Source of the DNA: Gentiana macrophylla
Taxonomy: Eukaryota; Streptophyta; Magnoliopsida; Gentianales; Gentianaceae
NCBI GenBank assembly: GCA_026214975.1
Contig: JAOBSW010000566.1
Location: 1 to 64,000 of the forward strand
Length of the DNA stretch: 64,000 nt
Direction: 5' to 3'
The position numbers and the translations under genes are program-made. The notes beneath the pieces were generated by a model. That model was not told the origin of the DNA and searched no databases. It saw only the letters and a program-made list of their open reading frames with translations. Numbering within the stretch: the stretch's first letter is position 1; every line of letters starts with the position of its first letter. Of the stretch, positions 1-53,390 are shown one piece after another.

Positions 1-200
1 GCACACAAACAATTTGAAAAAATATTACATGTAAGCCGTCTGTCTAAAGCATACATGTGAAGCATGTGAAGAGGGAATCATAAAATAAAAGAGCATCTTC
101 ATTAATGATAAGGGGTAGTTATTTTTTAGCAAACCCGCGGCTTACAACGCCCCTTGGGTTTATCCAAAACAAAGGGGCAAAAAAAAAAACTACTACTTGT

Positions 201-998
201 TCAAGCAAACCCACAGTGGTCCAATGAGTGCGTCGGCACCCTGGCTACACTACATAACCTAGCAATAGGTGAGGTAAAAGGGATACGACGATCAGGATTC
301 ATCGAGACCGCAAAGTTAACTGCCTCGCGGTGAATCAGGACCCCCCAATCAATGTCAACCTGGGGGTCACAAATAGCATGCAGAAGGAGGGCTTCGGCCT
401 CACTGACAACCTTGAAATCCGTGGACGGAAGAGTGCATGAGTTGATAAACCTCTTCCACTCACGATTGCTGCGAGACAATTCAGACGCAGGACCCATGAT
501 GCGAGGCCGTTGGTAATCTAGGAAAAGCTCACGGATTGCCCGGCGTAGGCGAACCTGTCTACTTGCCTCATCTCCAAGGTTCCAGGCAACCTCATAATGA
601 GCAGAGGGATCGATAGCAGGTATGCGAAGAGCCTTATTGATAGCCTTCGGGGTAAAAATGACGGAGACACCATGGAGGGCCACACAACTAACAATTTCTG
701 CGGAAGGAACCTCTGATAGGACAGAGTAAAATTCCCTTACCATCGTAAGGTTGAAGTGTATCGGAGGTGGTGAAACAAAATCTAACCGCCCGGAGAACCG
801 CACCCGGAGCAAAGAGCCGTCACACTCAACTATGCCCTCATTTAAGCCCCTCTCCCTCACCAGCCTGACCACATCGAAATAACGCCAGAAATGATCTTTG
901 GCAGTAAGAGAGGCAGTAAGGAAGAAAGGGGAAACATCACGAGCTGGACGGGCTTCCCACACTCGGACTGCATTACCCTCTCCGGATTGAAAAGACAT
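201..998 (-). CDS. Antisense retrotransposon protein, Transposase_32 (putative plant transposon protein) type
   Basis: An open frame of about 265 residues starts at the ATG at 998 (MSFQSGEGNAV) and ends with TGA at 201-203. The frame also extends three codons upstream to a GTG. Recognisable features of the plant Transposase_32 family are a FDVVRLVRERGL segment near residue 45, a VREFYSVLSEV segment near 90, a GVSVIFTPKAINKALRIP segment near 110-127, and a WKRFINSCTLPSTDF segment near 180 (numbered from the first in-frame codon). The family's function is unknown; it is found in and near plant retrotransposons. A TATA box lies 61 bp upstream of the ATG on the same strand, so this may be an independent antisense transcription unit. 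I see no stop or frameshift inside it. A missing exon cannot be excluded. Confidence 0.6.
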   Translation of the reverse strand: MSFQSGEGNAVRVWEARPARDVSPFFLTASLTAKDHFWRYFDVVRLVRERGLNEGIVECDGSLLRVRFSGRLDFVSPPPIHFNLTMVREFYSVLSEVPSAEIVSCVALHGVSVIFTPKAINKALRIPAIDPSAHYEVAWNLGDEASRQVRLRRAIRELFLDYQRPRIMGPASELSRSNREWKRFINSCTLPSTDFKVVSEAEALLLHAICDPQVDIDWGVLIHREAVNFAVSMNPDRRIPFTSPIARLCSVARVPTHSLDHCGFA

Positions 999-1058
999 GA
1001 ATCTCACAACAAAGATTTGTGCAAAAGAGGAATGGAATAGATCCAGGTTTGCTCTCTC

Positions 1059-1066
1059 CTTTTATA
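1059..1066 (-). promoter_or_regulatory. TATA box of the first antisense gene
   Basis: The minus strand reads CTATAAAAGG here, about 60 bp upstream of the ATG at 998. This is normal TATA-to-start spacing for a short leader. Confidence 0.45.
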
Positions 1067-2340
1067 GCAAAAGAAAGAAAGATAAACGGCCACGATTGAC
1101 AAGATCGGACGACCAGCATCCACGCGGTTTTACCCAAAAATTTGAAATCCAGGGGGCGCATTTAACGCTTGACAATTATCAGCACGAGATTCTAGGCTAT
1201 ATTGACTACGCATGCACCGTTGGTCAAAATATTTCCAGTAGCCTATCCAATCAAATCAGAGCCCTTGCTTTTTTAGCAACACGACAGTCAAGAAAGGTCT
1301 GTCCCTTCCAATCGGTCCAGCCTTTAAGTTTCTGGCAAAACCACTATTTCGCCATAAACTTAAGGGGCCGCAAGCTGAAAATTTCAAACAACAAACTATA
1401 CGCAGCATGGCCTGTCCCAAATCCCCAGCAAGGGTGCGCGTTAAGCTTTATGCCACTTCGCCAAGATACCTCCAACGAACCCATGATGGAATTCTCAAAG
1501 TATAGTCGCACCATAGGTCATCTCAAACTGGGGGCCGCGTTCGGATTCTACGGTCACTTATTTGCCACAAGTCCGCAGCGACCAAAGTTTTTATAAATGG
1601 ACGGAAACTTGTTTCGTTCAGGCCCATCCAGGCCTTGCCCTAAACAAGGGGGCATAAGGAAATTTTAACACACAACAAAAGCAAGTATAAACTTGGTCGC
1701 TGATCCTTGTTCCAAATAAAGAGGGCCGCAACAGGAATTTTCGATCATTTTTATAGATTCTTCGGTTTTATTATTTTAGCGAGCTACTCAAACCTCACCA
1801 AAATAAAGAGGGCCGCACACATACAAAGGATGCAGGAGAAAAATCAAAAGAAACAAGTGCAATACATAAATCATGAGGCCAAAAAATGGCCACAAATCAA
1901 GTTCAACGAGCCAAAACGAGGCCACAGAATCAATGCGGAAAATAAAAACTAAAGTTATTACAATCACATCAAAGGAAAGCGTCGCAATAGTTCAAAAACA
2001 AAAGCAAAAGTTGATTATTACAAGATCGTTGGAAAAAGTTTCAAAGCAAGGGCATAAAATCACTAGGTTGAACCGGGGGGAGTATCAATATACTCGTCGT
2101 CTGGTTGGTCGTCCGCAGCAGCAGGAGGATTCTTTAAAACAACAAAGTTGATGAGGGCTAGCTCTTTGGAGGATCCCAGATGGCGGCGCCGTGCTCTATC
2201 TGCCTATTCTGAATAGCGACGATGTGATCCGCGGCGTAAGGTATATCTGGGTGAAGGGCCAACAGGTCGGGACTTCGTTGAGACATGTTAAGCCACCGGA
2301 GCATTTCCTCAAAGGTAATGCTCTCTTTGCCATGATAAGC
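1067..2340. other. Spacer between the two antisense genes
   Basis: I see no protein similarity in the frames here. The motif AAATAAAGAGGGCCGCA occurs twice, at about 1714-1730 and 1800-1816. Runs resembling GGGGCC occur elsewhere in the spacer. It probably holds the upstream control region of the first gene and the 3' untranslated region of the second. Confidence 0.4.
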
Positions 2341-4964
2341 CTAAAGGCAGCGAGCGAGGTGGTTGAAACCTTGATCGAAGCTCGCCTCCGGGTAATCAAC
2401 AAACTCATCAGAGCGCTTAAAGGCAGCAACGGCCGCAGGACCCGCCTCCTCAGCAGCCTTATTTGCAACAGCGAGCTGCTCCTTTAAACTCGCGATCTCC
2501 CCCTGCGTGGCCGTCAACCCTTCAGCAGATTTATGAGCTTCATCTTTCAGAATTGACACCTTTGCTGCCCATTTCGGCGTCGGCTCTGCACTCTCAATCA
2601 TGGCCTTTTTCATCCGATCTAACTCGGTCAAGGCCTCAGCGCTCTTACTCTCTGAAGCAACCCTAGCCTTATCCGAAGCCCCAAGAGCCGCAGTCACTTT
2701 CTTAAGTTCAGCCTTACGCTTCTCAGCAGCCTCAATGGCCTTGTTTATACGAGTTCCAAGCTGAAAAAGAAGAGAAGTATAAGCCCTCCAGAAAAAACAA
2801 AGTAAGCAAAAATACAAGACAAATAAAAGCTCACCATAGAGGCTGCGATCCCAAACTGGCCGGAAAGATCTTTAAGCTCAACGACTTCGTCTTTGGTGGG
2901 GGCATCGTCTTGAACCACGACGCGTGCAGTGATTCCCCTTCCAATCTCCATCTGAATGCCAGGCGAAGAATCCCAGGCAAGACATCCCAGAGGGATGACG
3001 TCGGCAATTGCCTCCCTGATCTGGCTTGCCTTCGACATATCAAGGCCTTGGACGAAATTAGCATCCAGCCAAACAGCCTCTTTCCCTTTGTAACCTCGGG
3101 GAAGGGTCCCTCCAGGCAACGCCCCCATCTCCTCGACGACCTCTTCAACAATTACCTCTGACCGCACAAAGCCTTTGTCAGAAGGTCGCTTGTCCAGACG
3201 GTCAGAACCTTTGTCAGCTCCACCAGCAGTCTTGTCCTTCTCAGATCTGGATCGCTTTTGGCCCTGAGGCTCTTTAACAGGCACATAAGTCTGCGATCTT
3301 TTTTGGGCCCCACCGGCCTGACTTGAGCTAGCACTATATGGCGCCGCGGTGGTGATTGGGGTAAACGCGTCTCATTTACAACAGAAGCATCCACAATACG
3401 TGGTACCTTCCCTAGGACCTGTTTTAGGGTCGCCTGTCGAGTTTTGGCATGCTCATCAGTGAGCCTCTGTCTTTGAGCCCGGCGAAAGAGTTCGTTAGAA
3501 ACGGGTCCAAAGAAAAAACAAAACCATACAGCTTACAAAGTGATGAAAATAAAAACATGGAAGATTACAAGGTGGTCTTCTATTTGGGTCGCCTCCACAT
3601 ACAGGACATTTAGAAGGAAAACACTTGCCCAAGTGGCAATCTCCTATCCAGTCAGGGTCGCATTCTTCTGGGGCCATGGCAACTAAAGGCTCCGCTCCAG
3701 CCGGCCATGCGTGCCAGGGGAAGAGCCACATCAAGAAGGTTGACCCAAGCCACGTTTCTCAAAGAGGGATCAACCCCGTCAGACTGTATCAGCGTCATGA
3801 GCCCTTTAACAAGGCGATGCTCAGTAACTAGGGGCTCGCCAATAGAAAGGGTGGACTTTCCTTTGCGCTGTGCTGCCTTGGGGAATGGCCAACCAACTTT
3901 GGACTCCACTTTAAGCACTCGTTCTTGCCATCTATGAATCTTATTTGGTAGCAAGAACAGCAGGCGAGGCGTCTTGGTCCTCAAAGATATCTGTCGCGGA
4001 AGGTCCGTCGCACAGAATAAGTGGAATTGACCCAATAGAGAGAGAGTGGGCTCCATCTTCATTGTCCGACACATAACAATGAAGGCCATAATCTGAATAA
4101 CAGCTCCAATAGCAAAATCAGTGGGTAGAGCTCCCATCAGCTCGCAAATCTTGACAAAAAACGGATCGAAAGGGGGTCTGAGCCCCGCATAGAAATGATC
4201 GAAGTGAAGGATCAGGGTATCGTCCGGACGACGGGTGCAAACATAATCCTCGCGGTCTCTGGGTTTAAACTTATCCTCCTCCTTCGAATAATCAAAAAGA
4301 GAAAACCTGTAGACTTTTGTATCAATCTTGTATCGACGCCGGAGAAGGTTGTTAAGGTCATCACTGTCGCGGAGCATCACCCACTCATCCTCCAGAGCCT
4401 TCTCATACGCGGCGGAAGGGTAAACTCACTTAACGCTTCAGGAATATTGGGTTTCGGGTTTTTTTGCCTTCGCCGCCGCTTCACCAACAGTCATTGTTTT
4501 GGGGTCCCTTTTCTTTTTTGGTTTCTTTGGGAGCTCCCAGATAACCTTACGGGTAAAGGCGCGTTCTTGTCCTCGCTCGAGCCCATGAGCTCGTGAAGAG
4601 TGGCGTCCTCAATATATGCCTCGTCATGCTTAACGGCGCCACTAGAGCTGGGTCCGGCGGCCTGATCTTCAGCATCAAACGTCTCCCTTCCTCCGGCCTC
4701 ACTAGTACTGGTCCCTTGATTGCGAGCCATTTCTTTACGACTCTTTTTACGATGCGGCTCGGGATCAGGGAACATAACATCTAAACCAAAAAGATCTCCG
4801 CCTACTTGAACAGTGGCCTCTCCCCCGGTTATCTCAGCAAGCAGATCGTCCCCGGTAGACACATCGGGGCTAGAAGGGTCATCCTCCCCTACATCCAGTG
4901 CATAGTCATAGGCTTCCTGATCCCCTTCGGAGTCGCCCCCTAAAGAATACTCTCCGTCGGACAT
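2341..4964 (-). pseudogene. Antisense multi-exon gene of the Transposase_28 (putative gypsy type transposon) family, decayed
   Basis: The first coding block starts at the ATG at 4964 (MSDGEYSLGGDSEGDQ), just after an acceptor-like TTTTGCAG, and is acidic. The second block (about 4420-3652) carries the family core: DEWVMLRDSDDL, HFDHFYAGLRPPFDPF, ICELMGALPTDF and IQIMAFIVMCRTM. A further block (3284-2835) ends at ATG|GTGAGC and splices cleanly, in phase, across a 74 bp intron to TTTTCAG|CTTGGAACT at 2760. That last block is a coiled coil rich in A, E and K, with a stop at 2341-2343. The frame breaks between the first and second blocks (in-frame stops around 4425-4445), so the gene looks non-functional. 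The family is known from plant gypsy elements; the role is unknown. A 5' UTR intron (about 5337 to 4966) is plausible. Confidence 0.6.
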
Positions 4965-5573
4965 CCTGCAAAAGCAAGAGGAAAAGGTGGAGCTTTGGAC
5001 TGGTATAATGGGGATTAAGCCGGGAAGGTGATCGCACCCATCTCGGCGCCTTCCCTCCATTTTCACATGAGAAATGGAAAGCAATTGCAAACAAAGGAAA
5101 ATACTGAGATCTGAATGAGTGAAGCAGAGAGAGAGAAGGTTTCAAGGCATGCCTCACCCCTCCTCTTTTCAGAAAAATCTTGCCTAAAACGAAAGTGTCA
5201 ACTCAAAAAACCCAGAATTTTGCCTAAAAAACGTCTTAAAGTTGAACGCATTGCCTCACAGCGGATCAAACTTGCTAAAAAGGATCGAAATACGGAAAGA
5301 AAAACAGAGAATGAGGTTAAGGGAAGAAGGATTTACTTGTTTCTGAGAAGAAGCTAAAATCGGTGGCCAGAAGAACGCATCGGAATCCTCAAACTCGTGA
5401 CCAGAATCTTCAAATCCTAGCTTGAAACCGCAAACTTGCTTCAACCACAACCAAATCCTCCTCAAAACCCTCACCGGAAAACCTTTGCACACTCGGTAAC
5501 AATCAAAGTTGCGAGAGGAAAAACTGAAGGGGAAAGAAAGAACGAAAAGTGTGAAGGTTGGAATGATGAGAGC

Positions 5574-5581
5574 CTTATATA
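5574..5581 (-). promoter_or_regulatory. TATA box of the second antisense gene
   Basis: The minus strand reads GCCTATATAAGGC, about 610 bp upstream of the ATG at 4964. The gap fits a leader with one intron, since a possible donor CAA|GTAAATCC lies near 5337. The stretch 4965-5573 holds no coding signal. Confidence 0.45.
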
Positions 5582-5882
5582 GGCAGAGGGAATTTGATCG
5601 TACGGCCAGGGGGCCAGCCATCTAACGATCCAGGTTTGCGCGGCTATTTTCAGTTTTCGAAATTCAAAAACCATCATCATTAAAGCGCGATCATCAATGC
5701 CCACGTAATCAATTACTCAGCCGTTATCCGCCCCGCGTATTTGGGCTATTACAAACGACCTCAATACCCACGCTCTTACGGTTACCAAGAAAGCGGCGCC
5801 CGACAACGATCGGCGATTGAAGCGCCCCACTCGCCAATGGGCGGATAGATTGCCGCCCGGCGACAAGGTCACAACCCAAAGT

Positions 5883-6045
5883 TGCCGAGGCCGTTCGCTT
5901 TAAAAGCGCGTCCTAAGTGAACAAGTCGCATCAGGCAGCGAGGTCGCAAATAGACCGAGTTAGTTGCTTCGAGGCCGTTCGCTTCAAAAGCACGGTCCTA
6001 AGTGAACAAGTCGCGTCAGACGGCGAGTCGCAAATAGATTGAATA
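5883..6045 (+). repeat. Two-copy tandem repeat of about 85 bp next to the LTR
   Basis: The block starting GAGGCCGTTCGCTT and ending GTCGCAAATAGA occurs at about 5887-5955 and again at about 5971-6041 with few differences. It lies just before the presumed polypurine tract. Confidence 0.75.
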
Positions 6046-6104
6046 ATCCTTGAGCTCACTTTACTCCACGCTTAAACATTTCCCACGCGAAAAATGCTCA
6101 AGGC

Positions 6105-6712
6105 CTGAGTAGGGGGCCACCGATACGTACAAATGATATGGCCACATGTGGATCCGGAAATAGCCTATCGACCCACCGGACGGATAAAAGCCCTTGAACC
6201 GGTGTTGCGATCTTTACCCGCCCGTGTCGAAGTCGATTGTCAAACCCGCCGGAATACTCTTATGGATCGGGGCCGACCCGCGACCTCGGACAAAGGTCCT
6301 TGAGAGGTCGCACAAGACTTGATGAGAAGCGACAAGGAGCAAAAGCAAGCGGGACAACAACTCCGCGACCTATGCGATCCCAAGAGTCGCCCCGAGATAT
6401 TCTATCCACTTGCAGTCCAGGATATTTAAGGTTTATTTAGCCACTAAGTAAAACTTAGTGACTAAGTTGTCATATAACAACATCGCCCTTACCATACTCC
6501 TGAAACCTCCTCCTATATAAAAGAAGACATGTATGCGCAGAAAAAGATATATACATTTAATGTAAAGCGGTAAAGCTCTGCGAAAACTCTCTATCATATT
6601 CCTCCCATCGCCGTCATGCCACACCCTGGCTACCATCCATATAACAACCTACATAAAAGCGGATATCCATCAATCGTACACCGCTGAACCTCTGATGATG
6701 ATTTCAACCTCA
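6105..6712 (+). mobile_element. 3' LTR-like block of the gypsy element
   Basis: A G-rich tract (GAGTAGGGGGCC, about 6106-6117) is followed by a promoter-like region with TATATAAA at 6514-6521. The block ends near CCTCATCA. There is no second LTR in the window, so the ends are approximate and I could not define a target duplication. Confidence 0.45.
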
Positions 6713-7984
6713 TCATCGATCACTCCTAAAATTGAATGGCCATAAAAATAAATTCTCAAGGGTCAATTCTACCACTTGAGAATTGCTTCACAATTGCTTC
6801 ATGAATTTGTTGGATCTAGTTCAACCATTAGACAATATGTCCCATACACAAAAAACGTAGTCCCCAGTCTAACTGTCAGCAAGTGGTATAACTTAATTGT
6901 CAAATTTATTGTATTGGTATGGTGGAGCCTGAGGCAGATGAAGTGTGGAGCCACCATGAATATGAACTCATGGATCATGATTGAAAGTCATGGCCAACTA
7001 ATTAATATGATAATAGTGAGAAATAGTACATATTTATATCGTTCTGATCTCTATATGCCGACTAAAATCAGTCGCGTTTATCAAGAACCTCATTTTACTT
7101 AATAACTCCACGGAGGTGAAGTGATAAATGAAATAATCAAAACCATACGGTATATATTATAGATATAAATTGTGTAGTTCTAATCATTTCACGGATCATA
7201 TCAAATACTAAAATTTTTCTCATATCAACGTGCCAAGTAGATGGAAATTATATGGTTTCAGTTGAGTTGACTCAAACGATTACAAAGAAGCTGACATTTT
7301 CTCTTTGCAAGAAAAAAATATTTATTAATTTGATGAGGAAGAAATGAGAATATAATCATCCCTTAATAACAAGTAACCTAATTCCAAAAATCTACCCTGA
7401 AGAAAAAACTTACCTGATTAAAAGGGAGCATTTACGTGCATCTCGATAAATATATTTGGTGTGTCATAATATTCTAAAACATAGCCATTTATCCAAGATA
7501 ACACGCTTTATGTGTGAATTATGACACTTGATCTGGAAAAAAATTACTTGACTAAATTCGATCTTCATTATCTGTTATCACATATGGAATCGAATTTTCA
7601 AAGGCCGATCATATAATTGTTAAATTTATCCCATATTTGACGATTATTGTTTCACATATATATTAAGAAATCAACGTCTCATGATAGATAACAAGTTTTG
7701 AGGTTGAAGGCTCTTATATATTGTTGGTATCATAGCCACACATTTATACCGTTCAAGTGTTGTGTTTTTTTTTAGGCCTACACTTAAAGTTATCTCATAT
7801 TGTACATTTGTTAAAAGTTGTCTCATATTGTATATTTGCTATTGTTCCACCTTCACACGTTAAGAGATGGAATTCTCCAAAACTCCTTCTCTTATATCTT
7901 GTTGGACAAGATTTTATACAATAATCAACTTGCTAATAGTGGATTCTCCTTTAGTCGAGTCTAAGATTGATTTTCGAAAAGTGG
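6713..7984. other. AT-rich intergenic sequence
   Basis: No convincing coding frame, RNA gene or transposon end was seen in this stretch. Confidence 0.4.
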
Positions 7985-11599: not shown

Positions 11600-11653
11600 T
11601 GATTATATATTGTATAACACTTTAGATTCACGATTTTTCTTTGTCGTTGGGGG
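11600..11653 (-). repeat. Inverted fragment of the viral sequence
   Basis: The + strand here matches the reverse complement of about 12776-12828 at roughly 85-90 percent, sharing TATATATTGTATAA and TTTCTTTGTCGTTGGGGG. It indicates a rearranged second viral piece in opposite orientation. The following 11654-12009 stretch is not recognised. Confidence 0.7.
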
Positions 11654-12009
11654 AGACTATGCATTGCAGGTGGAGAAGATGATGAATATGGCATTTCCTG
11701 TGAGGAAAATAATCATGAAGAAAATGAAAAAGGACAAACAAAGTGTTCTTCTCAGAAAATGGAGTAAGAAAAATATTCATCCAATTCACACTGTATCTGA
11801 TAATTCAAATATCCGACATACTGTTTCAATTACTATTGTACAACAGTAAAAGGTAATGATGATGTCGGATGAGAGAGAAATTGTCTGTTGATGACTCACT
11901 GTTCATGTAAATTGAAATTGGATTTTCTCTCAAACCAACCGTTGGATCATGGTGATTTCAGGTGCCTCTGCACGCAAGACCAAGCGACGTTAGTGCAAGC
12001 GACTAAGGT

Positions 12010-12207
12010 TGTCCAAAGACTGAGTCATGTCAACATCCAACAGAAAAATGAGGGATTATCTAGCAAGCACCCGGAGGAATGCATATGCAAGTTTAAAGCG
12101 GAATCTGTTTGGAACAGTTCCTAGGTTTTCTTACAGGGCACCTGCTAGGAGACCAGCTATATTTTATAAAAAAAAACCTTTTTTAGGCAAAAGAAACTTT
12201 CAGAGAG
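12010..12207 (+). repeat. Left copy of the terminal viral repeat (start of the coat-protein gene)
   Basis: The match with 16211-16404 begins at TGTCCAAAGACTGAG and ends around AAACTTTC. Over the first 120 bases I count two substitutions. Small indels cluster after that. Confidence 0.88.
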
Positions 12208-12754
12208 GAGATTGTTAACAATTCATGACAAACTTACAATTGAAAACATAGGTGAATGTAAGTTGTTGAACAATATAAATCAAGGGACTAGTTCTGACCA
12301 AAGACTTGGACATGATATTAATTTATATGGGATTAATATTAAAGGAAAGGTTCATCTTCAAGTTTGTGAGGATTTAACAGGTCTCCATGTGATATGGTTT
12401 TTAATTGTTGATAAAAAACCAAAAGCTACTTCATCAGAAACTTTGAAGATGCAGGATGTTTTCGACATTTATGCTGATGAACCTTCTACTGCAATGATTA
12501 AGGAGGAGATGGTGATGATTCGAGGTATTAAGGCGGGAGTGTATTGGCTTTCAAAGCGGGATCTACTTGGTGGTCGGAAGGAGCAAGTCGTAAAAGAATA
12601 TTGCAACAAAAAAATTCTAGTTAAATATGGAGGTGCAACCACAGACACTATTGATAACATTCATGAAAATGCAGTGTACTTATGTGCAGCAAGTTCAGTG
12701 AAAGGCACATTAGCAGTAATGACATTATCTGTCAGAATGTATTTTTATAGTTGA
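12027..12754 (+). pseudogene. Geminivirus coat protein-like gene, frameshifted
   Basis: The gene encodes a relative of the geminivirus capsid protein (Gemini_coat family), which packages single-stranded viral DNA. The start at 12027 opens a basic, arginine-rich N-terminal segment, as expected for the nuclear-import and DNA-binding end. That frame closes at about 12218 beside an A-rich run. The rest (about 180 residues, 12212-12754) continues in another frame, so one frameshift separates them. The second part has family landmarks at about residues 63-70 (FLIVDKKP), 83-94 (VFDIYADEPSTA), 151-157 (HENAVYL) and the closing RMYFYS. Total length, about 240 codons, is close to the usual 250. The related nuclear shuttle protein was considered, but the EPSTA and C-terminal YFY regions favour coat protein. 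Confidence 0.82.
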
Positions 12755-12932
12755 TGTATTTAATTTGTTTATCACCCCCAACGACAAAGAAAGATTGTGA
12801 ATCTAAGAAGTATTATACAATATATAACTGCAGCGGCTGGCCCAATGTTTTTAATAAAATGGATCTTTTATTTCCAAGTAATAGTGTTTTTGAACTCTTT
12901 TCTTACAATGGTTTTGCGGAGGGACAGAGGGA

Positions 12933-12940
12933 CTTTTATA
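12933..12940 (-). promoter_or_regulatory. Complementary-sense TATA box beside the viral origin
   Basis: The minus strand reads ACTATAAAAGTC about 35 bp to the left of the hairpin. Geminivirus Rep promoters have a TATA box in this position and orientation. No Rep coding frame follows it here. Confidence 0.5.
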
Positions 12941-12974
12941 GTGCCTCTCGATTCGATTTTAATCTGGCGTTCAA

Positions 12975-13009
12975 GTGGCAAAACCAAATAATATTACGAG
13001 TTTTGCTGC
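12975..13009 (+). other. Geminivirus-type origin hairpin with TAATATTAC
   Basis: The nonanucleotide TAATATTAC (12989-12997) sits in a 15-nt loop between arms GTGGCAAAAC (12975-12984) and GTTTTGCTGC (13000-13009). The arms pair over 10 positions with two G-T wobbles. In geminiviruses this is where Rep nicks the DNA to start rolling-circle replication. A GGTGGG / CCCACC inverted motif lies downstream at about 13031-13055 and could be an iteron-like Rep-binding site. Confidence 0.85.
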
Positions 13010-13347
13010 GTGTCGGCATATGATTTTTTTGGTGGGAGCATTTGTCCCCACCCACGTGGATATTGTTTCGATTGTGCATCACATTCCCTTTTACTTTGTT
13101 GTACAATAGTACTTGTCGGTACTTTTCTACTGCTGAGCAATAGTGAAAACGCGTTTTATTTTTAACTTTTCTGCTTTAGCAACTATCGTCTCTCAGACAA
13201 TCATTACTCTTTTTGAAAACTTTTGCCCTAGTACTATTCATAAAGCGACTTTTTACTGTAGCAATTGATCGGAACGAAGAATTTTCTGAGTTTTACTCCG
13301 ATTGATTGGTTATCTGTTGATCTTCTGGGAAAAGCATCTACAAAAGA

Positions 13348-15710
13348 ATGGAAATCCCAATAGCATAGTCCGTTTCTGGTGATTACGAGACTGATTGTAC
13401 TGATATCAAGTCAGGATCATCTGTCGTATCTGTTAAGTTAAAATACCCTAGTTTTATTGACAGGGCATTCAACAAGATGAAGAATCTGTCAGTGATGATA
13501 GATAGTTGTCTGTTGATGTACAGACCTCAATGCCCAATGAATTCTGAAGGTTGTGTGTCTCGGATTTTATCAACGGAAAACAAACAAGTAATAAAAATAA
13601 TCCGGTTTACCCCAAGTGCAGGGATCGTAGTATAGCGATTACAACCGGAGTCGAATCACAGGGAATCGAGGTTGTTTATCTAGTTTATTAATTCTCCTCC
13701 TAGTTGTCACGAAATATAACTAAAAACGAAAACGAAGAACAATAAACTGGACAGAGGGTTGTCAATCCAAAGCCAGGAAAGATAATTGCGAACGAAAATA
13801 ACTCTATCTATAAACTAAAAAGAAAATAAACTTCTAAGAAAACAACGTAGAACAAGGCACAAAGATAATTTCAATTAAGTTAACGAGGAACACGCAATGA
13901 TCCACCTATCTCGCAACTCTCAATTTCTCCTTAGATCGTTTAGTGAAGATTTAATAAAGATGCGGTTCACCTATCAAAGGTATGGACTCCTAATCTCTTA
14001 GAAAAGTTCGCCTATCAATCTTTTATCTTTCGATCTTAAAGATTAACGCTTTCAATTCAGAGGTGTAAGATTTCTCAATCTAACAATCTAGATATTCAAC
14101 CTAATCAACTCTCGTTACTTATAGGTTAAAGATCCAATCTTTCCTGTGGTGATCTAGTGTTTACACCGATTCTCGTCACATAGTAAACATCAATAGCAAA
14201 ACATCTCTCGATTTAAATTTGCATAACACATAAGCATAGAAAAGAAGCAACTTAATTAAAACTCACGAAATCATCCAAAGGAAGAAATAAAAACGCTGCA
14301 GAAAAGTTTCACATGCTTGCCCCAAGTTTGATCGACTTCAAGTCATCCTCATGAATCGAACAAGAAGAAAACAAAATAAATAAAACAACTAATCTAACCC
14401 TCGGTCGACCAAGCACAAGGCTTGGCGACCGAGCACAACTCGGCGAGAATTTAGGGTTTTGCGTTCTTTGTCGATATATGATATGATTAGGGTTGAAATA
14501 ATGCGGCTATATATAGAAAACTAGGTCGGTTATGCGTAAGTCGGCCGTGGGCGCCCGTCTGGATGAGTGGACGACGTCCGTCTTGATAAAATCTTGAATC
14601 GGGCGAAGTGGATCAGACGCGACGTCCCATGCAAAATTGGGCCTTGATTCATCGATTCGTCAAAACTTTGAATCAAACTTCTTCAGCCCGGACGCCCGTC
14701 CAGAATTTCAAACTCCCGTCCAGATGGACGGGACTTCAAACGCACGTTCAGTTAACATCTCGGCTTCACGAATCCAATTGCTCCTCCTGGGCGCTTGATT
14801 CAGTATTTGGGCGCTTCGTCGATCCTTTTTCTTCCAAATTCATCTTGATCTTCATTCCAACTTCATTTCTATCTCTTTCCTTCCATGCAAATCATCACTT
14901 GAACATCTTTTAAGCTCCTTTCATCCCTCTCCATGACATGTAAATGTACCTTCAAAACCATAAGAACACGCAAAGTGTAAAACCATAGATAATTACCAAT
15001 AAAATCACGAAATTAGCTCAAGTTTACACTTAAATACTTTTAAAACTCATATGCTCAATAATTCGATTAAACCCTTAATTTCTATGCAAATAATACGAAT
15101 ATGGAGGAAATCATTATAAAATATAACGATATAAATCGCATAAAATCACCCTTAACATTGTGTTAGGGTTAGAGTTTTTGATAACAGATTATGTGAACCT
15201 GATTGCAAACAGGCAGAGTTCATTTTCCCAGTATCATGTTGTTTGAATATGACCTATTTTGGTAATGCTTATGCCAGTTTGAATGACAAGGAATGTCCTT
15301 GGTCAATTATTTATGTTTTGGAAAATGCTAATATTAAGGCCGATGTTAATTACTGCAAGATGAAAGCTTTTCTAAAGCTGTCCACATTGAAGAGGCCTAA
15401 TGAATTAGCATTTAGAGGTCCAGTAATTGACATAAAGTCTAAAATTTTCAGCAGGGATAATGTTGATGTATGGCACTGTGGATTTAAAAAACCCACTTTG
15501 AGCCGTTGTCTTAGTGCTCGAGCTGACCACATTGGAAAGGCCAAGGCTATAACATGTGGACCTGGAGATGCATTTTCAGATAGCAGATCGTCTTTTAGTC
15601 ATTTGGAGAGGCCTAGTATATGCGACAGGCCCAATAAGCCCAGTACCTCTAGTAATGTTTTATCTCAAACGATTGGCCCATCCAACATTGTTGGGCTTAT
15701 CGGCCAGTGA
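13348..15710 (+). pseudogene. Begomovirus BC1-type movement protein-like gene, interrupted by a solo LTR
   Basis: The gene resembles the movement protein that carries geminivirus DNA between plant cells. A possible start at 13348 is followed by a TAG in the same frame at 13366. The frame then runs open to the LTR insertion site at 13555 and resumes in phase after the second target-duplication copy, closing with TGA at 15708-15710. Excluding the insertion it spans about 250 codons, somewhat short of the usual 290. Family landmarks in the right-hand part (numbered from 15243) are CPWSIIYV at about 18-25, KAFLKLSTLK at 41-50, FRGPVIDIKSK at 57-67, NVDVWHCGFKKP at 73-84 and CGPGDAFSDSRSS at 105-117. 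It lies in the same orientation as the coat protein, unlike bipartite begomovirus DNA-B. Confidence 0.8.
13556..15157 (-). mobile_element. Solo LTR (1602 bp) inserted in the viral movement-protein gene
   Basis: The block begins TGTCTCGG and ends CCTTAACA (TG...CA), with a perfect 5 bp target duplication TTGTG (13551-13555 and 15158-15162). It has no coding content. The orientation is inferred as minus, because the reverse complement carries the conserved plant-LTR stretch ending in GATTCCCTGTGATTCGACTC. It shares several segments with the solo LTR at 61958-63737, including CGAGCACAAGGC-like and GTGGGCGCCCGTC words. Confidence 0.88.
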
Positions 15711-15938
15711 AGATCGATCAAACTTACTGACGAAGTTGTTAAGAAGAATCTTTTGGAAAGTGAAAAAAATAAAATTAAATATGGTGTTGCGTGCAATTGC
15801 AAGCAAGCTAACATTAATAAGTATACCTTCTTTGTTGTTTAGTCATTCGGTCATTGCATGGAAGAAAATGTGTATGCTATAATTTGTGGCTTATTATCTG
15901 TTTATTCACAACAGTCTTAAATTTAATAACTATTTTAA

Positions 15939-16325
15939 ATGGGTTTACGTATATTCGATGTGGGCGAATATCCCACGAGTTGGGAAGGATCAAGAGTGAT
16001 GTGCGTAGATCTTTGGATTTCATCACAATTGGCACAATTAAGTGCCTGTCAAGAGACAGGGGAGAAATTTGTCTGTCAAGGCCCTTTGTTCATGGATCAG
16101 AGGAATCAGTTTCTGTTAATGCAAAGGTTGGCTAAATTTCGTGCTATTAATCGCAGATTTAACAGGCAGAAGTGTAAGTATTTTATTAAGAAGCAGAAAG
16201 CAGAGGTAGATGTCCAAAGACTGAGTCATGTCAACATCCAACAGAAAAATGAGGGATTATCTAGCAAGCACCCGGAGGAATGCATATGCAATTTTAAAGC
16301 GGAATCTGTTTGGAGCAGTTCCTAG
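15939..16325 (+). CDS. Unassigned viral frame in the V2/precoat position
   Basis: A 128-codon frame starts MGLRIFDVGEY and overlaps the second copy of the coat-protein start (ATG at 16228). In many geminiviruses a V2 or precoat ORF begins upstream of coat protein and overlaps it. Similarity to V2 is weak by eye, so the identity rests on position. The last 35 codons read the coat-protein start region in another frame. The stretch 15711-15938 before it is AT-rich and unassigned. Confidence 0.4.
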   Translation: MGLRIFDVGEYPTSWEGSRVMCVDLWISSQLAQLSACQETGEKFVCQGPLFMDQRNQFLLMQRLAKFRAINRRFNRQKCKYFIKKQKAEVDVQRLSHVNIQQKNEGLSSKHPEECICNFKAESVWSSS

Positions 16326-16404
16326 GTTTTCTTACTGAGGCACTGCCAGAGACCGACTATATTTTAAAAAAACATTTTTTAGGCAAAAGAAACTTTCGAG
16401 AGAG
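16211..16404 (+). repeat. Right copy of the terminal viral repeat, cut off 13 bp before the next transposon
   Basis: It matches 12010-12207 and contains the coat-protein ATG (16228). It ends at about AAACTTTCGAGAGAG, and the left TIR of the next element begins at 16418. The rest of the second coat-protein copy is absent. Confidence 0.88.
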
Positions 16405-17276: not shown

Positions 17277-17637
17277 TTGACATGCTACTTGATGGAGTGA
17301 TATTGATGGCGATCTGGGGACATTGATGGTGATGCGATGACATTGCCGACTTATCGCGGTGACATTGATGTCGATCTGGTGACATTGACGACTTATGCAG
17401 TGACATTGCTGACTTATGCAGTGACATTGATGTCTGATGCAGGGACATTGATGACTTATGCAGTGACATTTCTGACTTATGCAGTGACATTGACGACTTA
17501 TGCAGTGACATTGATGACTTATACAGTGACATTGATGTCTGATACAAGGACATTGATGACTTATGCAGGGACATTGATGACTGATGTAGGGACATTGATG
17601 TCCAATGCAGTGACATTGATGAATATCCAGGGACATT
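17277..17637. repeat. 21-bp minisatellite, about 16 units
   Basis: Units of the type GTGACATTGATGACTTATGCA repeat with point variation. Because 21 is a multiple of three, open frames run through on both strands (SMSLHKS-like heptads on the minus strand). These frames are by-products, not genes. A shorter block of the same units lies at 17862-17975. Confidence 0.9.
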
Positions 17638-18189
17638 AAGCTAAACAAGATCGTCAAATGATTCAAGATTGTGTTAAAGAATTGAGGGATTCCACAATGA
17701 ATCCAATTATCAGGAAGGCACAAACAACGTGTGGCCATTACAAGAGTCATAGTGAAGAGTCTTTGTAGTTTCACCAAACTTGTACTTCTATCCATATTAA
17801 AAGCTCCACAATTGGAGAAATGCAAAACAAGAGCAGAGAGTGATCGATGCGATTGTTAGGTTTATGCGGGGACATTGGCGACTTATCTGGTGACATTGGC
17901 GACTTATGCGGTTGACATTGATGTCGATGCAGGGACATTGATGACTTATGCGCATTGACATTGATGCATTTGTATTTACAATTAGATAACTAATGCAATG
18001 ATATTGATGTCACCGCATATACAACTTGATACACACATTTGATAACTTTGTAAAGTAACTTTATTTCTTTGTTATCTTTAAATATTTGATTGGTGTTGGT
18101 TTATTTGATTAGTGTTGGTTTAAATTTTTGATAACTTTGTAAAATAACTGTATTTCTTTTTTTTGTTTAAATGTATTTTTACAACCAAA

Positions 18190-18365
18190 GGTATGAATAA
18201 ATTGTTACAATAACACGTCACTGCATAAATCGTTACAATAACACGTCGGTGCATAATTCGATACAATAAGACATCATTTGCATAGATCGCTACAATAAGA
18301 AGTCATTGCGATAAATCGCTACAATGAGGCGTCATTGCATAAATCGCTACAATGAGATGCCACCG
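18190..18365. repeat. About 30-bp minisatellite, six units
   Basis: Units resemble CATAAATCGCTACAATGAGG plus about ten further bases. They are followed at 18370-18500 by a third array built from GGTCAATGCATC-type words of 18-20 bp. Confidence 0.8.
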
Positions 18366-22264: not shown

Positions 22265-22501
22265 AGACCGGGGTTTTTAAGAAAAAAAAAAAGGCTTACA
22301 TACAATACAAAAAGTGAAGGAAATATTAAAATGCGGTGTTGTGTGCATTAAAAATAAACTAATTATACTAAAAATACATATAAAAGTAATGTTTAAATGC
22401 ATCTTAAAAGTATTTGCTACGATGAAAATGTTATATTCAAATAAGAGGCGATCATATAAGAATGGTGAAAGACAAGCTCGAATTATTGTCGAGCTGAATT
22501 G

Positions 22502-22627
22502 CGGGGCAATTCTCCTTTGGCAGCGAGCTAATTATTGTACAAAATTTACAGAAATTAAATAGAATATTGCGATCATTAAATTATGTGTAAGAGAAAATAA
22601 GCTACTGCCAGAGGAGTAGTTGCCCAG
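22502..22627. mobile_element. MITE with GGGCAATTCTCCTTTGGCA ends (member 1)
   Basis: The left end GGGGCAATTCTCCTTTGGCA is mirrored by TGCCAGAGGAGTAGTTGCCC at the right. Related ends occur at 26896-27296 and 37751-37848. The target duplication is not evident. Confidence 0.55.
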
Positions 22628-24554
22628 TAATGCAACTATACACTTAGAAAATTCAAGTGTTGAAATGTGATGGTGAACATGTTTGTAGTTTGAAATGTAT
22701 TTATAGGTAATTAAAGGGCAATATGATTAAATCTTTTTCCTCATGCAACCAGTATATGCTTCAAAAAATCCTTTATTCTTGAAGTTGTAAAGAGAACCCT
22801 AACATGTGCGGATCGATTCTCTTGTTTACGGACGAGGTTAGAAATTTATATTGGGGTGGACGGAACAAAAATAAAAAAATAGGGTTAGAATAACTTTATT
22901 ATATATATAAACTAGTTAACCAAGTAAAAATTATAATAAAAAAAAATAAAAAATAAAAAAACTCGAATGAGCTCAACCCCGAGTCCAATGAATGCATTGA
23001 TTGCGTTATTTCTATACATTTCCTTGTTTTAAGCAATTATTATCATATATTTACTAGTTTTATGGTGTTGGATGCTGGTGTTCTTGCTGATATAGATGAT
23101 GTATTATTACTGGATGTGAGAGAAAAAGAATTAAGATATAACTTTGAGACATATTGCATTTTATTAAGTAAGGTTAATCATATAGTTAAACGACAATGAA
23201 AAGACTACGCAGTAACGGCATTCATTATGACTCAGATAGTATTGATTGACAAAGACGGTGGTCCACCATTAGAAACTTCTACTCGAAAGATATAGTGATG
23301 AGAAATAATGATTTTAAACACGGTAGGTGTCAAATATGAAATCTTTTGATCAGAAGATATTAATGTTGACACATAATAGATTTGATAATAAATTGGTTTG
23401 ACCATGTTTCGTTATACGATGATAATGAGTCTAACATATTGAATTCTTTATTGTCTGACCTAAATTCTATTTCGTTAAAGATATTTCCATGTATTTCCTA
23501 AACTTATTTATCACTCAAGTGACACCGTCTAACCTAAATTCTAGTTCGTTAATGATGTTTTCATGTCTCTCATAAACTTATTTCCATGTCCTCACTCAGG
23601 GTATAATTTGTTGAAATGTTTAATATGTTAATTATGTAAACTTAACCTTCTAAAAGATATGTAATTAAATATTATTGAGGACTTCGAATCATTATTATGC
23701 CATGGAAATTTTTGAGAACATTTGTGTTAAAATGGAATCAAAGTAATAAATAAAATAAATAAACAAGGGTATGAGTATATTGGATATTCTTCAAAATATT
23801 CCACATAGAAGAACTGCACTGTGAAATTTTCCTGAAACAAATACATGATATCAGAACAGAAAACGATTGATTCAAATATATATCTCTATCAACATTGTTT
23901 TACTATTGTTCATTCGTTACACTTTATTGTTGGCCTTGCAGTCATTTATGTGCATTTGCATGTCATGTATCATGTGTCATATACTCTTTGTTATAGACTT
24001 GCACTTGATAAGGTGAGTTGAAGCCAATGGTGTTGTGATGACAGCCTTCCTTTTGAGCTAGGGCGTGAGAATTCGACCATATATATATCGACTTATCTTA
24101 GTAAAAAAAATGTGTATATTGATGTAAGTCAACTAGATGCTACATTTTACGATGTTTTATCCCCATTTCTCATGCGTTTATTGGTGTTTTCGTATCAATT
24201 CGAATAACTATTGTGATAATTTGGTATCTCTTGCGTACATTGTAAATATTATAAAAACGATACTTTTGTCGATTATCTAGGCAATATTGGTCAAGTTTTG
24301 TTATCGGAATCACGTGTGGTAGTCTTGTGATCTTTGAATCTTTATTGGAACAAGTTTCTATCTTTTGGTATAAACTCCATTGCAGCTCTTTTGACATTCA
24401 ATGCGAGTTCTTGAAGTTCATAGCTTTTGGTTGGGTAAATTCTTGAGAAAGACGCGTGAATTTTAACGAATACTCTACTATACAGTTTTAAAACACGTTT
24501 TTCTAGTTTACAGAATCTTTATTTAAGATGAAATGCATCAGACTCTTTAGTTTA
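22628..24554. other. AT-rich intergenic sequence
   Basis: No gene, RNA or clear transposon end recognised. Confidence 0.4.
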
Positions 24555-37291: not shown

Positions 37292-37750
37292 TTTCACGTA
37301 TATATCATATTATCAGTCCGGCCACAACGGCAAATAAAATTTCTCGATATTTATACGCGTGTACTTCGAAACAAAACATCATTCAAACTCATCGAAAAAT
37401 GCAACAAAACATAGCAGCGTACCTTCGATCATTCAAATATAGTCAATTAATTACCCACCATTATGTCAATCTGTGGCCTCATGTCCGCAAAAGGAAGATT
37501 TCACAACAGAAATATTTCTCGGAATTGCATGGCTACCTGTACAAACCATTTTACGATAGGGGACCATATATACAAATTCAGCATAAAATTCTAGAAACCA
37601 AGTGCTAGAGGCATTGTGCACAGGATATGCCAATTAAGTTTCAGAGAATATCCAATTTTTATATGCGAATAGTTGCAGATAAAATGGTGAATTTCTGTTC
37701 ACAAAATTTGAACAAATTGAAACTACATCCTACAATGTAGAGAAGAATTA

Positions 37751-37848
37751 CAGGGTTGTTCTCCTTTAGCAAAAGATTTTTAAGAATGCAAAAATACAAT
37801 AAAATTGCAGTCGTTTTATATTGTTTTTGCCAAAGGAGAATTGCCCTG
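37751..37848. mobile_element. MITE with CAGGG..TTCTCCTTT ends (member 3)
   Basis: This 98 bp element has CAGGGTTGTTCTCCTTTAGC at the left and GCCAAAGGAGAATTGCCCTG at the right. Confidence 0.65.
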
Positions 37849-38094
37849 CTATTCTATTTCTCTACTATATATTTGAAGAAAAACATGAATTTTATTTTAT
37901 TTTATTTATTCACTGTCGTCTTTTTTTTGGGGTCATCTTAGTGAATGTTTTCATGATATTTGGAGAGTTTTGTATAAAAAAAAAAATCGTTATTCTTTCA
38001 CAAAGTTTTACATGACATTTGGAGCTTTAATTTGGTTGATATTTTAATATTTTATTTTGCTGAGGCACTTTAATTTTGAGGTTAAATTTTCAAT

Positions 38095-51299: not shown

Positions 51300-53390
51300 C
51301 GTTTGGATTCACCTCACAGAAGGAATTCGCCTCTTCTTTTGGCCTTCCAGGTTGCCTCTTTGAAATAGGAGGTAAAAGCGGCAACATTGGAATCTGCGGC
51401 TCATAAACCAACGGCAGCGGATGGATTGCGATTCATAACAAGCAAAGATATGAACTCGAGCGGAATCCAACATCAACAAATTCATGCAAGGGAGACCGAC
51501 TTTCATTATCTGACCTACCGCATGATCACAGGGTAACCATTCAATTGCCAAAACTTACAAGAACAAGTAAAATTCTCAAGATCAACCATACAAGATGGCG
51601 TTGAACGCACTTCAAATACATATCCACTTGAGTTGATGATAATCCAATTCTTAGATGCGACAAATGAATCGCTAATATCTTGTCTATACTTGGGCATATT
51701 GCGTAATTCCATGAAGCACAAGCGGACCTACATTCTACAAATAAATCCAATGGATCTCATTATGTAAAAATATACAAGAGCATTTAAAATACTTAATACA
51801 AAAAGCCATTAAACAGAAACATACCAGAAATTTGATTCATAATCTTCAAGCGCAGAGCATCAATCATATTACATACGGGTAATTGCCTCTCTTTTACAAC
51901 CCACGAATTAAATGATTCTGCTGCACTTGAAGACATTTCACCATATCGCATGCCTTTAAAATGAGCATTCGTCCATCTTTCAGCAGGTAAGGCGGTAAAG
52001 AAATCACCTACAATTGTCTTACCCTCTTGTAACATAACACTCATCAAACTATCATATAGATCAATTGTTGGTGCATAAGCACTTTATGCATAAAAGATAA
52101 ACCATACGCTTCTTAAAACCCTTGCTGAATCTGGAACCTCTAAATTTGTCTTTCAAATTCAACTTAATATGAAAAATGCAAAAAACATGGTCTGAATCTG
52201 GGAAAACAATAGGCCTGGAATCTATTAAATTAGTATTTCTATCCGAAATAAGCGTAATTACTTAGTGGGATCAACTATGTTCTTCAAATTCTTAAAGAAC
52301 CAATGCCAGTTCTCAGTATTTTCGGAGTCAACAACCGCAAAACAAAGAGGGTACAAGCCTGATACAAAAAGAACAGATTCATATCAACACGTCAAGTAAT
52401 AAAGAGAAGAAAGTAACACACAAAAAAGAGAAAAATTGAATAAACCAACAACACAACTCTAGCCAAAGAATGAATACTGAGACCTTGATCACCATCTTTC
52501 GCAACTACCGACAAAGTGAGCTTTAAATTGTGTTTTCAAATGAGCTCCATCCAAACACAAACATTGGCGGCAATGCTTAAATCCTCAATCGCGACCATGA
52601 AGCGCAACAAACACCCTCTTTAAAAGCGACTTGAAACCTCATCAACTTCCAATACCACATAAGAGCCGGGGTTCGTTTCACGAATCTTTGACACGTATGA
52701 ATTTAAAAAATTAAAAGATTCTTTCATGTCACCAAACAGAGCATTCTTCGCTTTTTCGATACCGGTCCAAGAATTGTAATATAAAACAGGCAAACCATGA
52801 TTTGAAAAAAGCCGACGCTTAACATCAATAAGCTTTATTGAGGGATCATCACGAACTTCATTACAAACCAAATCACAAACCAAAGTTGAACTCATCCGAT
52901 GCCCTTTGAAAGAACGCGATGACGTACCACATGTATGTAACTCAAGCATCTTCTTAACATAAAAAAATCCATTAATAATTTCCTTTTTCGCACTAACCAT
53001 CCAAGCACAGCCTGTTTCATCCTTCTTTGCACACACTGCCATAATCCTCTTATCATCATTCTTAATGTATATGAAATCAAACCCACTGTGAACAGACATT
53101 TTACACAATGCTTTCCTAAATTCTGTTGCTCCACCAACAAATTTTTGACCAACACATTCTACACACTTATCCCAGTTGATAGACAATTGCATATTCTCCT
53201 TCCGAGGACAAAACGTAGGAAGCAAATTGATCTCCTCATCATCGGATTCAGTAATAGATGATGATGCAACTGATTCAATACTAGTAGAAACCACAGTAGA
53301 AGCCACAGTAGAAACCCACGGTAGAAGCCGCGGTAGAAGCATTACAAACACAACATATGCATGTACACGTGATGCACTAAGCGAAGCGAA
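51300..53390 (-). pseudogene. Mutator-like (MuDR family) transposase, decayed
   Basis: The largest open block (53351-52620) carries the MuDR N-terminal DNA-binding region (VGQKFVGGATEFRKALCKMS, FIYIKNDDKRIMAVCAKK, CAWMV, LHTCG). It is followed by LDGAHLKTQF with the first catalytic Asp near 52548. A 125 bp intron (52483-52359) with clean GT-AG sites keeps the DQG/LYPLCFAVVDSEN reading. The second Asp lies in LISDRN at about 52241, followed by HVFCIFHIK. Downstream are AERWTNAHFKGMRYGEMSS and AAESFNSWV (around 51900), then a SWIM zinc finger at about 51525-51575 (CSCKFW ... CDHA) split by a one-base frameshift. The enzyme would move MULEs by a DDE mechanism. Frameshifts make this copy inactive. 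Confidence 0.82.

What the first reader, a model, noticed from the sequence alone, without database searches (positions are those of the whole stretch)
11600..16404. Endogenous geminivirus with coat protein and BC1-type movement protein on one circle of about 2.6 kb
The + strand carries, in order from the origin: origin hairpin, a BC1-type movement-protein frame, a small frame in the V2 position, and the coat-protein frame, which then leads back to the origin. All lie in virion sense. Known bipartite begomoviruses put BC1 on a different component and in complementary sense. Citlodaviruses are known to combine a large BC1-related movement protein with coat protein in virion sense on a 3.6-3.8 kb genome. 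The unit here is about 2.59 kb with no Rep frame. The simplest reading is a citlodavirus-like genome that lost its Rep half. An alternative is a distinct Rep-less component. Endogenous copies of this gene combination are unusual.
Basis: partly seen in the sequence, partly recalled or inferred. Interest (0 to 1): 0.95.

Follow-up and report, generated by a model that had tools for sequence, protein, structure and literature searches.

The report
Rep-deleted endogenous geminivirus plus satellite-like piece
A plant chromosome carries a broken copy of an unusual geminivirus that has lost its replication gene, and the same genome holds many relatives that keep this gene as well as many copies of a small satellite-like unit that shares the virus's replication origin.

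Summary
Window 12010-16397 carries a geminivirus coat protein (Pfam E 6e-21), a BC1/BL1-type movement protein (E 1.6e-21), a V2-position frame and an origin hairpin with TAATATTAC, all in virion sense. The unit is 2.59 kb once a 1.6-kb solo LTR in the movement-protein gene is subtracted. It is not a Rep-less component. The genome (1.79 Gb, a plant, unnamed) has at least 140 movement-protein and 150 Rep matches. In relatives a RepA frame lies in complementary sense where the window has a seam (12877|12878); 1.16-1.18 kb lie between the seam sides in three loci. The intact layout is about 3.76 kb: citlodavirus-like in gene content, with a capula-/topilevirus-like RepA. Among 40 scored matches the seam recurs only at one allelic or duplicated locus.

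Two probes place it at 38 or more sites, in tandem runs of up to six. It is best read as an endogenous satellite, or a virus/host minicircle that became one, and is the most interesting part.

The parts
11603..12009 (-). Fragment of the ~1.25-kb satellite-like unit (reverse complement of unit positions 475-879)
   Evidence: 85% over 412 nt to one unit of the tandem array in L037; 40 scored of 379 candidate genome matches, 81-100%
11603..11656 (-). Inverted copy of the post-CP segment, part of the satellite-like unit
   Evidence: 89% to 12772-12827; unit positions 824-900
12027..12754 (+). Coat protein gene, in two frames (break near 12.2 kb)
   Evidence: 63-aa and 180-aa frames; PF00844 E 6.2e-21; 82% to an open CP frame in L007
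12772..12877 (+). Post-CP short intergenic segment (A side of the seam)
   Evidence: matches the region after CP in relatives, ending at 12877
12877..12878 (.). Seam: place of the missing Rep module (1,157-1,181 bp in L032, L040, L041)
12877..12954 (-). Leader of the Rep gene: 26 codons of the frame upstream of the RepA start; no RepA coding part is left
   Evidence: tblastn with the stop-to-stop L009 frame, 73%, E 9e-6, its residues 3-28; the L009 RepA start lies further in, at L009:908
12921..12933 (+). Tandem GGGAC iteron pair (putative Rep-binding site)
   Evidence: sequence; shared with relatives and satellite-like units
12975..13009 (+). Origin stem-loop with TAATATTAC at 12989-12997
13348..13555 (+). 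Movement-protein gene, 5' part, with a stop at codon 7
   Evidence: 82-96% DNA identity to the 5' part of MP genes in 30 of 30 loci; stop read from the sequence
13556..15157 (.). Solo LTR (TG...CA) inserted in the movement-protein gene, 5-bp target duplication TTGTG
15158..15815 (+). Movement-protein gene, 3' part, with a premature stop at 15708; 3' end placed only by the MP-V2 spacing of L009
   Evidence: PF00845 E 1.6e-21; genome search row C1252 E 3.7e-29 with one TGA; spacing
15939..16325 (+). V2-position frame, 128 aa, open
   Evidence: no Pfam match for the homologous frame of L016
16229..16397 (+). Second copy of the CP 5' end (start of a next head-to-tail unit, truncated)
   Evidence: 16211-16397 is 93% identical to 12010-12201

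Best explanation
The block is one member of a large family of endogenous geminiviruses in this plant genome. The source virus had a single molecule of about 3.76 kb: from the origin rightward in virion sense a 286-aa BC1-type movement protein, a V2-like protein overlapping the coat protein start, and a 244-aa coat protein; leftward in complementary sense a RepA/Rep gene. It integrated many times as whole, partial and tandem copies. At this locus everything between the post-CP segment and the Rep leader is missing, the unit is present head-to-tail for more than one length, a piece of a separate satellite-like unit lies at the left end, and a retrotransposon hit the MP gene and recombined to a solo LTR. 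The copy here is dead. Shown: gene content, the seam, Rep in relatives, the LTR, the satellite piece. Inferred: circular form; whether the deletion arose in viral DNA or after integration (not separable here); that many copies are separate integrations of a diverse virus population.
For: Pfam CP and BL1 matches. MP-V2-CP order in relatives. RepA frames in L009 and L018 with Gemini_AL1 E 1.9e-27 and 1.1e-26 plus Gemini_AL1_M, divergent from MP across the origin; RepA coding next to the origin in 15 of 30 loci; a divergent Rep hit upstream of 36 of 140 MP hits. Seam at 12877: relatives match one side or the other and break at or within three bases of it. Segment lengths: origin side to CP start 1,741 bp (L031), CP start to A end 858 bp (L040), A end to origin side 1,181, 1,157 and 1,172 bp (L032, L040, L041), together about 3.76 kb against 2.59 kb here. 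MP dN/dS median 0.163 over 91 pairs of 14 open frames, median dS 0.6: diversification under constraint, as in a replicating virus.
Against: No circle or episome is observed. Only 36 of 140 MP hits have a listed divergent Rep hit (71 of 140 have any Rep hit within 6 kb); lists were capped (140 of 364 and 150 of 331 candidates scored), and many copies are rearranged. 15 of 30 fetched loci have no RepA coding next to the origin (L002 and L024 keep only the leader, like the window). In L033 the A-to-origin distance is 802 bp because part of RepA is missing there too. The genome-wide CP search did not complete. The dN/dS sample was chosen for open frames, and V2 dN/dS is 0.78 (28 pairs), so constraint on V2 is not shown.
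Confidence: 0.88

Rival explanations
1. A distinct Rep-less component (CP+V2+MP on one 2.6-kb circle) of a multipartite geminivirus, replicated in trans.
For: The unit has origin, iterons, CP, V2 and MP and is repeated head to tail. The seam lies in the Rep leader, so the whole RepA coding part is cleanly absent. Endogenous arrays suggest that small Rep-less molecules with this origin existed. Olive geminivirus DNA-B also has a virion-sense MP without Rep (passages of PMC8540022).
Against: The seam is crossed only here and at C6:118188623, which shares the solo LTR and a 98.6% flank; 0 of 30 other loci show it, with the A side's end in view in 7 of them.
Confidence: 0.07
2. Deletion after integration inside a tandem array of full-length units, rather than integration of a pre-deleted viral molecule (a variant of the best explanation).
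For: The genome has tandem long copies (L032, origin to origin 3,769 bp), and a deletion in such an array would give the same seam. Both assembled copies of the locus share it.
Against: None decisive; molecules lacking parts of the genome also occur in geminivirus infections (passages of PMC6293997).
Confidence: 0.45
3. Assembly artefact joining unrelated copies.
For: The window contig is a small unplaced contig (C1252) and the family is repetitive.
Against: A second assembled sequence on C6 has the same seam, LTR and order at 94.9% identity over 5.2 kb (139 mismatches, 114 gaps), so two differing sequences agree.
Confidence: 0.02
4. For the left-end unit: not a satellite but a defective viral molecule, or host DNA that captured a viral origin.
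For: Beet curly top Iran virus makes 1,241-1,572-nt minicircles with the viral intergenic region plus AT-rich, ORF-less host DNA (passages of PMC6293997); the unit has a like make-up (up to about 200 nt origin side, 77 nt post-CP, about 950 nt with no more than 31-39-nt matches to virus-only loci).
Against: The unit-specific parts are shared among 38 places at 77% identity or more, both specific parts together at 9 of 27 probe-1 places, so this is one lineage that persisted and diversified, as a satellite does. No host source locus without the origin was looked for.
Confidence: 0.4

Closest known systems
Citlodavirus (Geminiviridae)
   Same: Large monopartite genome (3.64 and 3.92 kb in the passages read), large BC1-like MP, CP and V2 in virion sense, RepA/Rep in complementary sense, TAATATTAC (passages of PMC11053556 and PMC10850569).
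   Different: RepA is closest to capula-/topilevirus RepA, while citlodavirus Rep is described as becurtovirus-like; V3 and gene order not tested; the window copy lacks Rep.
Camellia 4.6-kb endogenous geminivirus 'integron' (PMC7758297)
   Same: Endogenous, hundreds of Rep copies, CP + MP + repA/repB, TAATATTAC, Rep sister to citlodavirus-type viruses; copies in hotspots.
   Different: 4.6 kb against about 3.76 kb; the one Camellia RepA in our results is 45% identical (P0020); no satellite-like unit is mentioned in the sections read.
Olea europaea geminivirus DNA-B (PMC8540022)
   Same: BC1-type MP in virion sense, 296 aa.
   Different: Separate component without CP.
BCTIV virus/host hybrid minicircles (PMC6293997)
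   Same: 1.24-1.57 kb, viral origin region plus unrelated AT-rich sequence without reading frames, replicated in trans.
   Different: Found as episomes, each with different host DNA; here one lineage integrated as tandem arrays, which also keeps the post-CP segment.
Deltasatellites (PMC4756297) and SEGS-2 (PMC8513466)
   Same: Small satellites with an origin used by the helper; deltasatellites are non-coding with TAATATTAC; SEGS-2 has relatives in a plant genome.
   Different: Deltasatellites are 633-750 nt with a betasatellite-like SCR and are unrelated to begomoviruses outside the nonamer; SEGS-2 has a 75-aa frame; our unit is 1.22-1.29 kb and shares up to about 200 nt plus 77 nt with the virus.

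Membership tests
Geminiviridae | Geminivirus coat protein | tested here: met
   PF00844 E 6.2e-21; PDB capsid proteins E 1e-16 for the L007 frame
Geminiviridae | TAATATTAC in a stem-loop | tested here: met
Geminiviridae | Rep of the Gemini_AL1 type, complementary sense | tested here: met
   in relatives; absent from the window copy
Citlodavirus | Genome of about 3.6-3.9 kb | tested here: met
   about 3.76 kb summed from segment lengths in L031, L032, L040, L041; the window copy is 2.59 kb
Citlodavirus | Large BC1-like MP, CP and V2 in virion sense | tested here: met
   V2 by position only, it has no Pfam match
Citlodavirus | V3 gene | not tested
   no reference V3 at hand
Citlodavirus | Order of MP and CP as in citlodaviruses | not tested
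   order not given in the passages read
Citlodavirus | Rep grouping with citlodavirus Rep | tested here: inconclusive
   best named matches are capula-/topilevirus RepA at 50-62%; in an 18-row tree the RepA rows fall in a 14-row clade with them (95/99) apart from begomoviruses, but no citlodavirus Rep was in the set
Citlodavirus | 78% genome-wide identity within a species | not testable with these tools
   no citlodavirus genome found in the collections searched; three viral-contig scans gave no relative
Bipartite begomovirus DNA-B | BC1 in complementary sense, NSP in virion sense, on a component without Rep | tested here: not met
   MP is virion-sense; Rep lies across the origin in relatives
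Deltasatellite | Non-coding | tested here: inconclusive
   the longest ATG frame in L037 (82 aa) is open in 1 of 4 full-length matches, but frames of 57 and 50 aa are open in 4 of 5 and 3 of 4, many of them in L037 itself
Deltasatellite | About 0.63-0.75 kb | tested here: not met
   1.22-1.29 kb
Deltasatellite | Betasatellite-like SCR and A-rich region | tested here: inconclusive
   no 100-nt bin above 36% A; SCR not tested

The most novel reading that the evidence does not exclude
The genome preserves a whole helper-satellite system: a citlodavirus-like geminivirus with a capulavirus-type Rep, and a 1.25-kb circle with no clear gene that kept the helper's origin, iterons and post-CP segment (perhaps the start site for second-strand synthesis, as suspected for the mastrevirus SIR), was replicated in trans by the helper Rep, and was endogenised repeatedly as tandem arrays. 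It would be an integrated geminivirus satellite lineage, plausibly a virus/host minicircle that became a stable satellite.
Probability: 0.5. Interest if true: 0.8.

Novelty: new variant of a known kind. Interest (0 to 1): 0.62.

Why it matters
Endogenous copies are the fossil record of geminiviruses. This family joins a BC1-type movement protein and a coat protein with a capulavirus-like Rep in one genome, which bears on how bipartite begomoviruses acquired BC1. The satellite-like arrays would date and document a geminivirus satellite; in macadamia, the one genome for which the papers read here report a search for a betasatellite gene among endogenous copies, none was found (PMC8626973). Where satellites come from (captured host DNA or reduced virus) becomes testable by comparing orthologous loci in related plants.

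Tried and rejected
Rejected: Rep-less component (seam found at one locus and its allele or duplicate only); assembly join (a second sequence agrees); begomovirus DNA-B with complementary-sense BC1. Led nowhere: tblastn against plasmids (no match); viral-contig scans with the MP, CP and Rep alignments (41, 185 and 36 pattern matches, none confirmed). The MP search found one relative, a Rhododendron molle protein at 39% over 55% of the query; the CP search found two unnamed proteins at 54-55%, one on a 3,609-nt contig, so no CP or MP tree across Geminiviridae could be built. A second hairpin in the satellite-like unit is significant in the window copy (z -3.7) but not in L037 (z -1.0), so it is not claimed. 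The host was not identified.

Searches behind 'not in print': (open-licence PMC texts only; listings) showed no report of an endogenous geminivirus satellite; subscription journals and preprints were not searched.
Full report
OBSERVATION. The window's 12010-16397 block carries a coat-protein piece (PF00844, E 6.2e-21) and a movement-protein piece (PF00845, E 1.6e-21) on the + strand. TAATATTAC lies at 12989, in the loop of a 10-bp stem, inside a region conserved with relatives. A 128-aa frame (15939-16325) lies in the V2 position. The CP 5' end is repeated 4,201 bp apart.

INSERTION. The MP gene is interrupted by a 1,602-bp element, TG...CA, flanked by the 5-bp duplication TTGTG: a solo LTR at 13556-15157. 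The MP also has a stop at its seventh codon and a TGA at 15708; the CP is in two frames.

GENOME-WIDE. The window is contig C1252 of a 1.79-Gb assembly. That the host is a plant is shown by plant-type transposon proteins, a UDP-glycosyltransferase piece and two MIR399 loci. PF00845 gave 364 candidates, 140 scored, all over the cut-off, on 13 chromosome-sized contigs (C1-C13) and small ones; 74 of 140 have no stop in the match, and they form 108 clusters at 50 kb. PF00799 (Rep) gave 331 candidates, 150 scored, none on C1252.

WHERE REP WENT. I mapped pieces of the window on 30 loci, the best MP hits with 1.5 kb of flank. Window 12755-13340 falls into two parts: A (after CP) and B (origin and MP leader). 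In none of the 30 do A and B adjoin; the end of A is in view in 7. Matches break at window 12877. The DNA left of B in L009 and L018 is a complementary-sense frame with Gemini_AL1 (E 1.9e-27, 1.1e-26) and Gemini_AL1_M. 15 of 30 loci keep RepA coding sequence in this place; L002 and L024 keep only the leader upstream of the RepA start, as the window does (12877-12954, 26 codons of the frame). So the window lacks the whole RepA coding part. In three of the 12 larger loci fetched, the distance between the A and B sides, with Rep between, is 1,181, 1,157 and 1,172 bp (L032, L040, L041); in L033, where part of RepA is missing, 802 bp. Of 140 MP hits, 36 have a divergent Rep hit within 1.4 kb upstream; 28 of 37 gaps are 567-668 bp. 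Summed segment lengths give about 3.76 kb for the intact layout; in L032 two origins are 3,769 bp apart, though that stretch also holds an inverted origin piece.

IS THE SEAM UNIQUE? A 121-bp probe over the seam gave 149 candidates, 40 scored. Two match across it: the window itself and C6:118188623 (100%). The other 38 match one side and stop at or within three bases of the seam. The C6 place is the same locus or a duplicate: it shares the solo LTR, 94.9% identity over 5.2 kb and 98.6% over 442 bp of left flank; it differs at the left end, where it holds more satellite-like sequence in inverted order. So one deletion event explains what was seen, and there is no sign of a Rep-less family, within the scored list.

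RELATIVES. CP: two unnamed proteins at 54-55% and capsid proteins in the PDB (E 1e-16). PF00844 also covers the nuclear shuttle protein; I call this gene CP because the V2 frame overlaps its start and because the PDB matches are capsids. MP: a Rhododendron molle protein at 39%. RepA: 23 proteins; named capula-/topilevirus-type RepA or Rep at 50-62%, a Malus domestica protein at 57% over 62% of the query, a Camellia one at 45%, begomoviruses at 31-41%. An 18-row tree puts three RepA frames of this genome in one clade (100/100) inside a 14-row group with the capula-/topilevirus-type rows and the Camellia and Malus proteins (95/99); 8 of 15 inner forks are open. Citlodavirus Rep is reported as becurtovirus-like with motif I FLTYSQ (PMC11053556 passages); the alignment of the frames here with their relatives gave the pattern FLTYP[HKQ]C. 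No citlodavirus sequence was available, so the placement is incomplete.

SELECTION. 14 open MP frames: median dN 0.084, dS 0.6, dN/dS 0.163 (range 0.05-0.289; 91 pairs). Eight V2 frames: median 0.78 (28 pairs). The MP figure fits divergence in a replicating virus and many integrations; frames were chosen for being open, which biases against decayed copies.

THE LEFT END. Window 11603-12009 is not part of that genome. It is 85% identical, inverted, to part of a unit that forms a tandem array in L037 (period 1,259, 2.8 copies, 93% matches). The unit holds the origin (positions 1-131, to about 200 against some viral copies) and the post-CP segment (824-900) of the virus; positions 201-823 and 901-1224 have no more than 31-39-nt matches in virus-only loci, but match parts of L001, L005, L006, L007, L013, L016, L033, L035 and the window. 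A probe from the window part gave 379 candidates; 40 were scored, all at 81-100%, in 27 places; in seven places two same-strand copies are 1,235-1,290 bp apart, and in one place three copies are at twice that spacing. A second probe from the other specific part gave 310 candidates, 40 scored, in 20 places, with runs of six, four, three and three copies at 1,219-1,266 bp; same-strand spacings of 1,145 (a partial match) and 1,406 also occur. Nine of 27 probe-1 places are hit by both; 15 of 38 places by either probe lie within 12 kb of a listed MP hit. All 4 unit origins read (three from one array) carry two GGGAC motifs; 13 of 18 viral origins read match the same pair pattern, L031 and L042 are near variants, and three in L041 differ. 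The longest frame is 82 aa, open in 1 of 4 full-length matches; frames of 57 and 50 aa are open in 4 of 5 and 3 of 4, so a small gene is not excluded.

HOW IT PROBABLY WORKED. Inferred: helper Rep binds the shared iterons and nicks the shared nonamer on both molecules. The post-CP segment, 82-98% identical between unit and viral copies (mostly above 90%; [quoted passage not shown] Geminivirus minicircles with host DNA in beet are 1,241-1,572 nt, ORF-less and packaged (passages of PMC6293997), so a captured-host-DNA origin is a serious rival. In macadamia a search for a betasatellite gene found none (section of PMC8626973).

WHAT WAS READ. PMC7758297: abstract, three result sections, passages. 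PMC8540022, PMC8705360, PMC11053556, PMC10850569, PMC4756297, PMC6333858, PMC6293997: passages. PMC8626973: abstract and one section. PMC8513466: abstract and outline. Others: listings only.

VERDICT. That family is a new variant of a known kind, and the satellite-like arrays are the part worth following.

Noticed in passing
11603-12009; L037 6072-9501: Fragment and tandem array of a 1.22-1.29 kb origin-bearing unit without a clear gene, sharing iterons with the endogenous geminivirus.
   Followed up: yes
L041 near 523, 2745, 5962: Origins of this locus carry different iterons (GGCG type) from the GGGAC type of most others read, which suggests at least two replication specificities were endogenised.
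   Followed up: partly
22492-22637 (-) and 37741-37858 (+): Two MIR399 precursor loci (Rfam) about 15 kb apart in the window.
   Followed up: no
17278-17637, 17862-17952 and 18197-18357: Tandem arrays of 21-bp and 28-bp units just right of the viral block.
   Followed up: no
1-7000; 52623-53408: Transposon-like proteins (PF20167 at 204-1061, PF04195 at 3655-4425) in a higher-GC stretch; a MuDR-type protein at 52623-53408.
   Followed up: no
L043 (C6:118184500-118191200): Allele or duplicate of the window locus with extra inverted satellite-like sequence; the window's left edge at 11603 is a rearrangement relative to it.
   Followed up: partly
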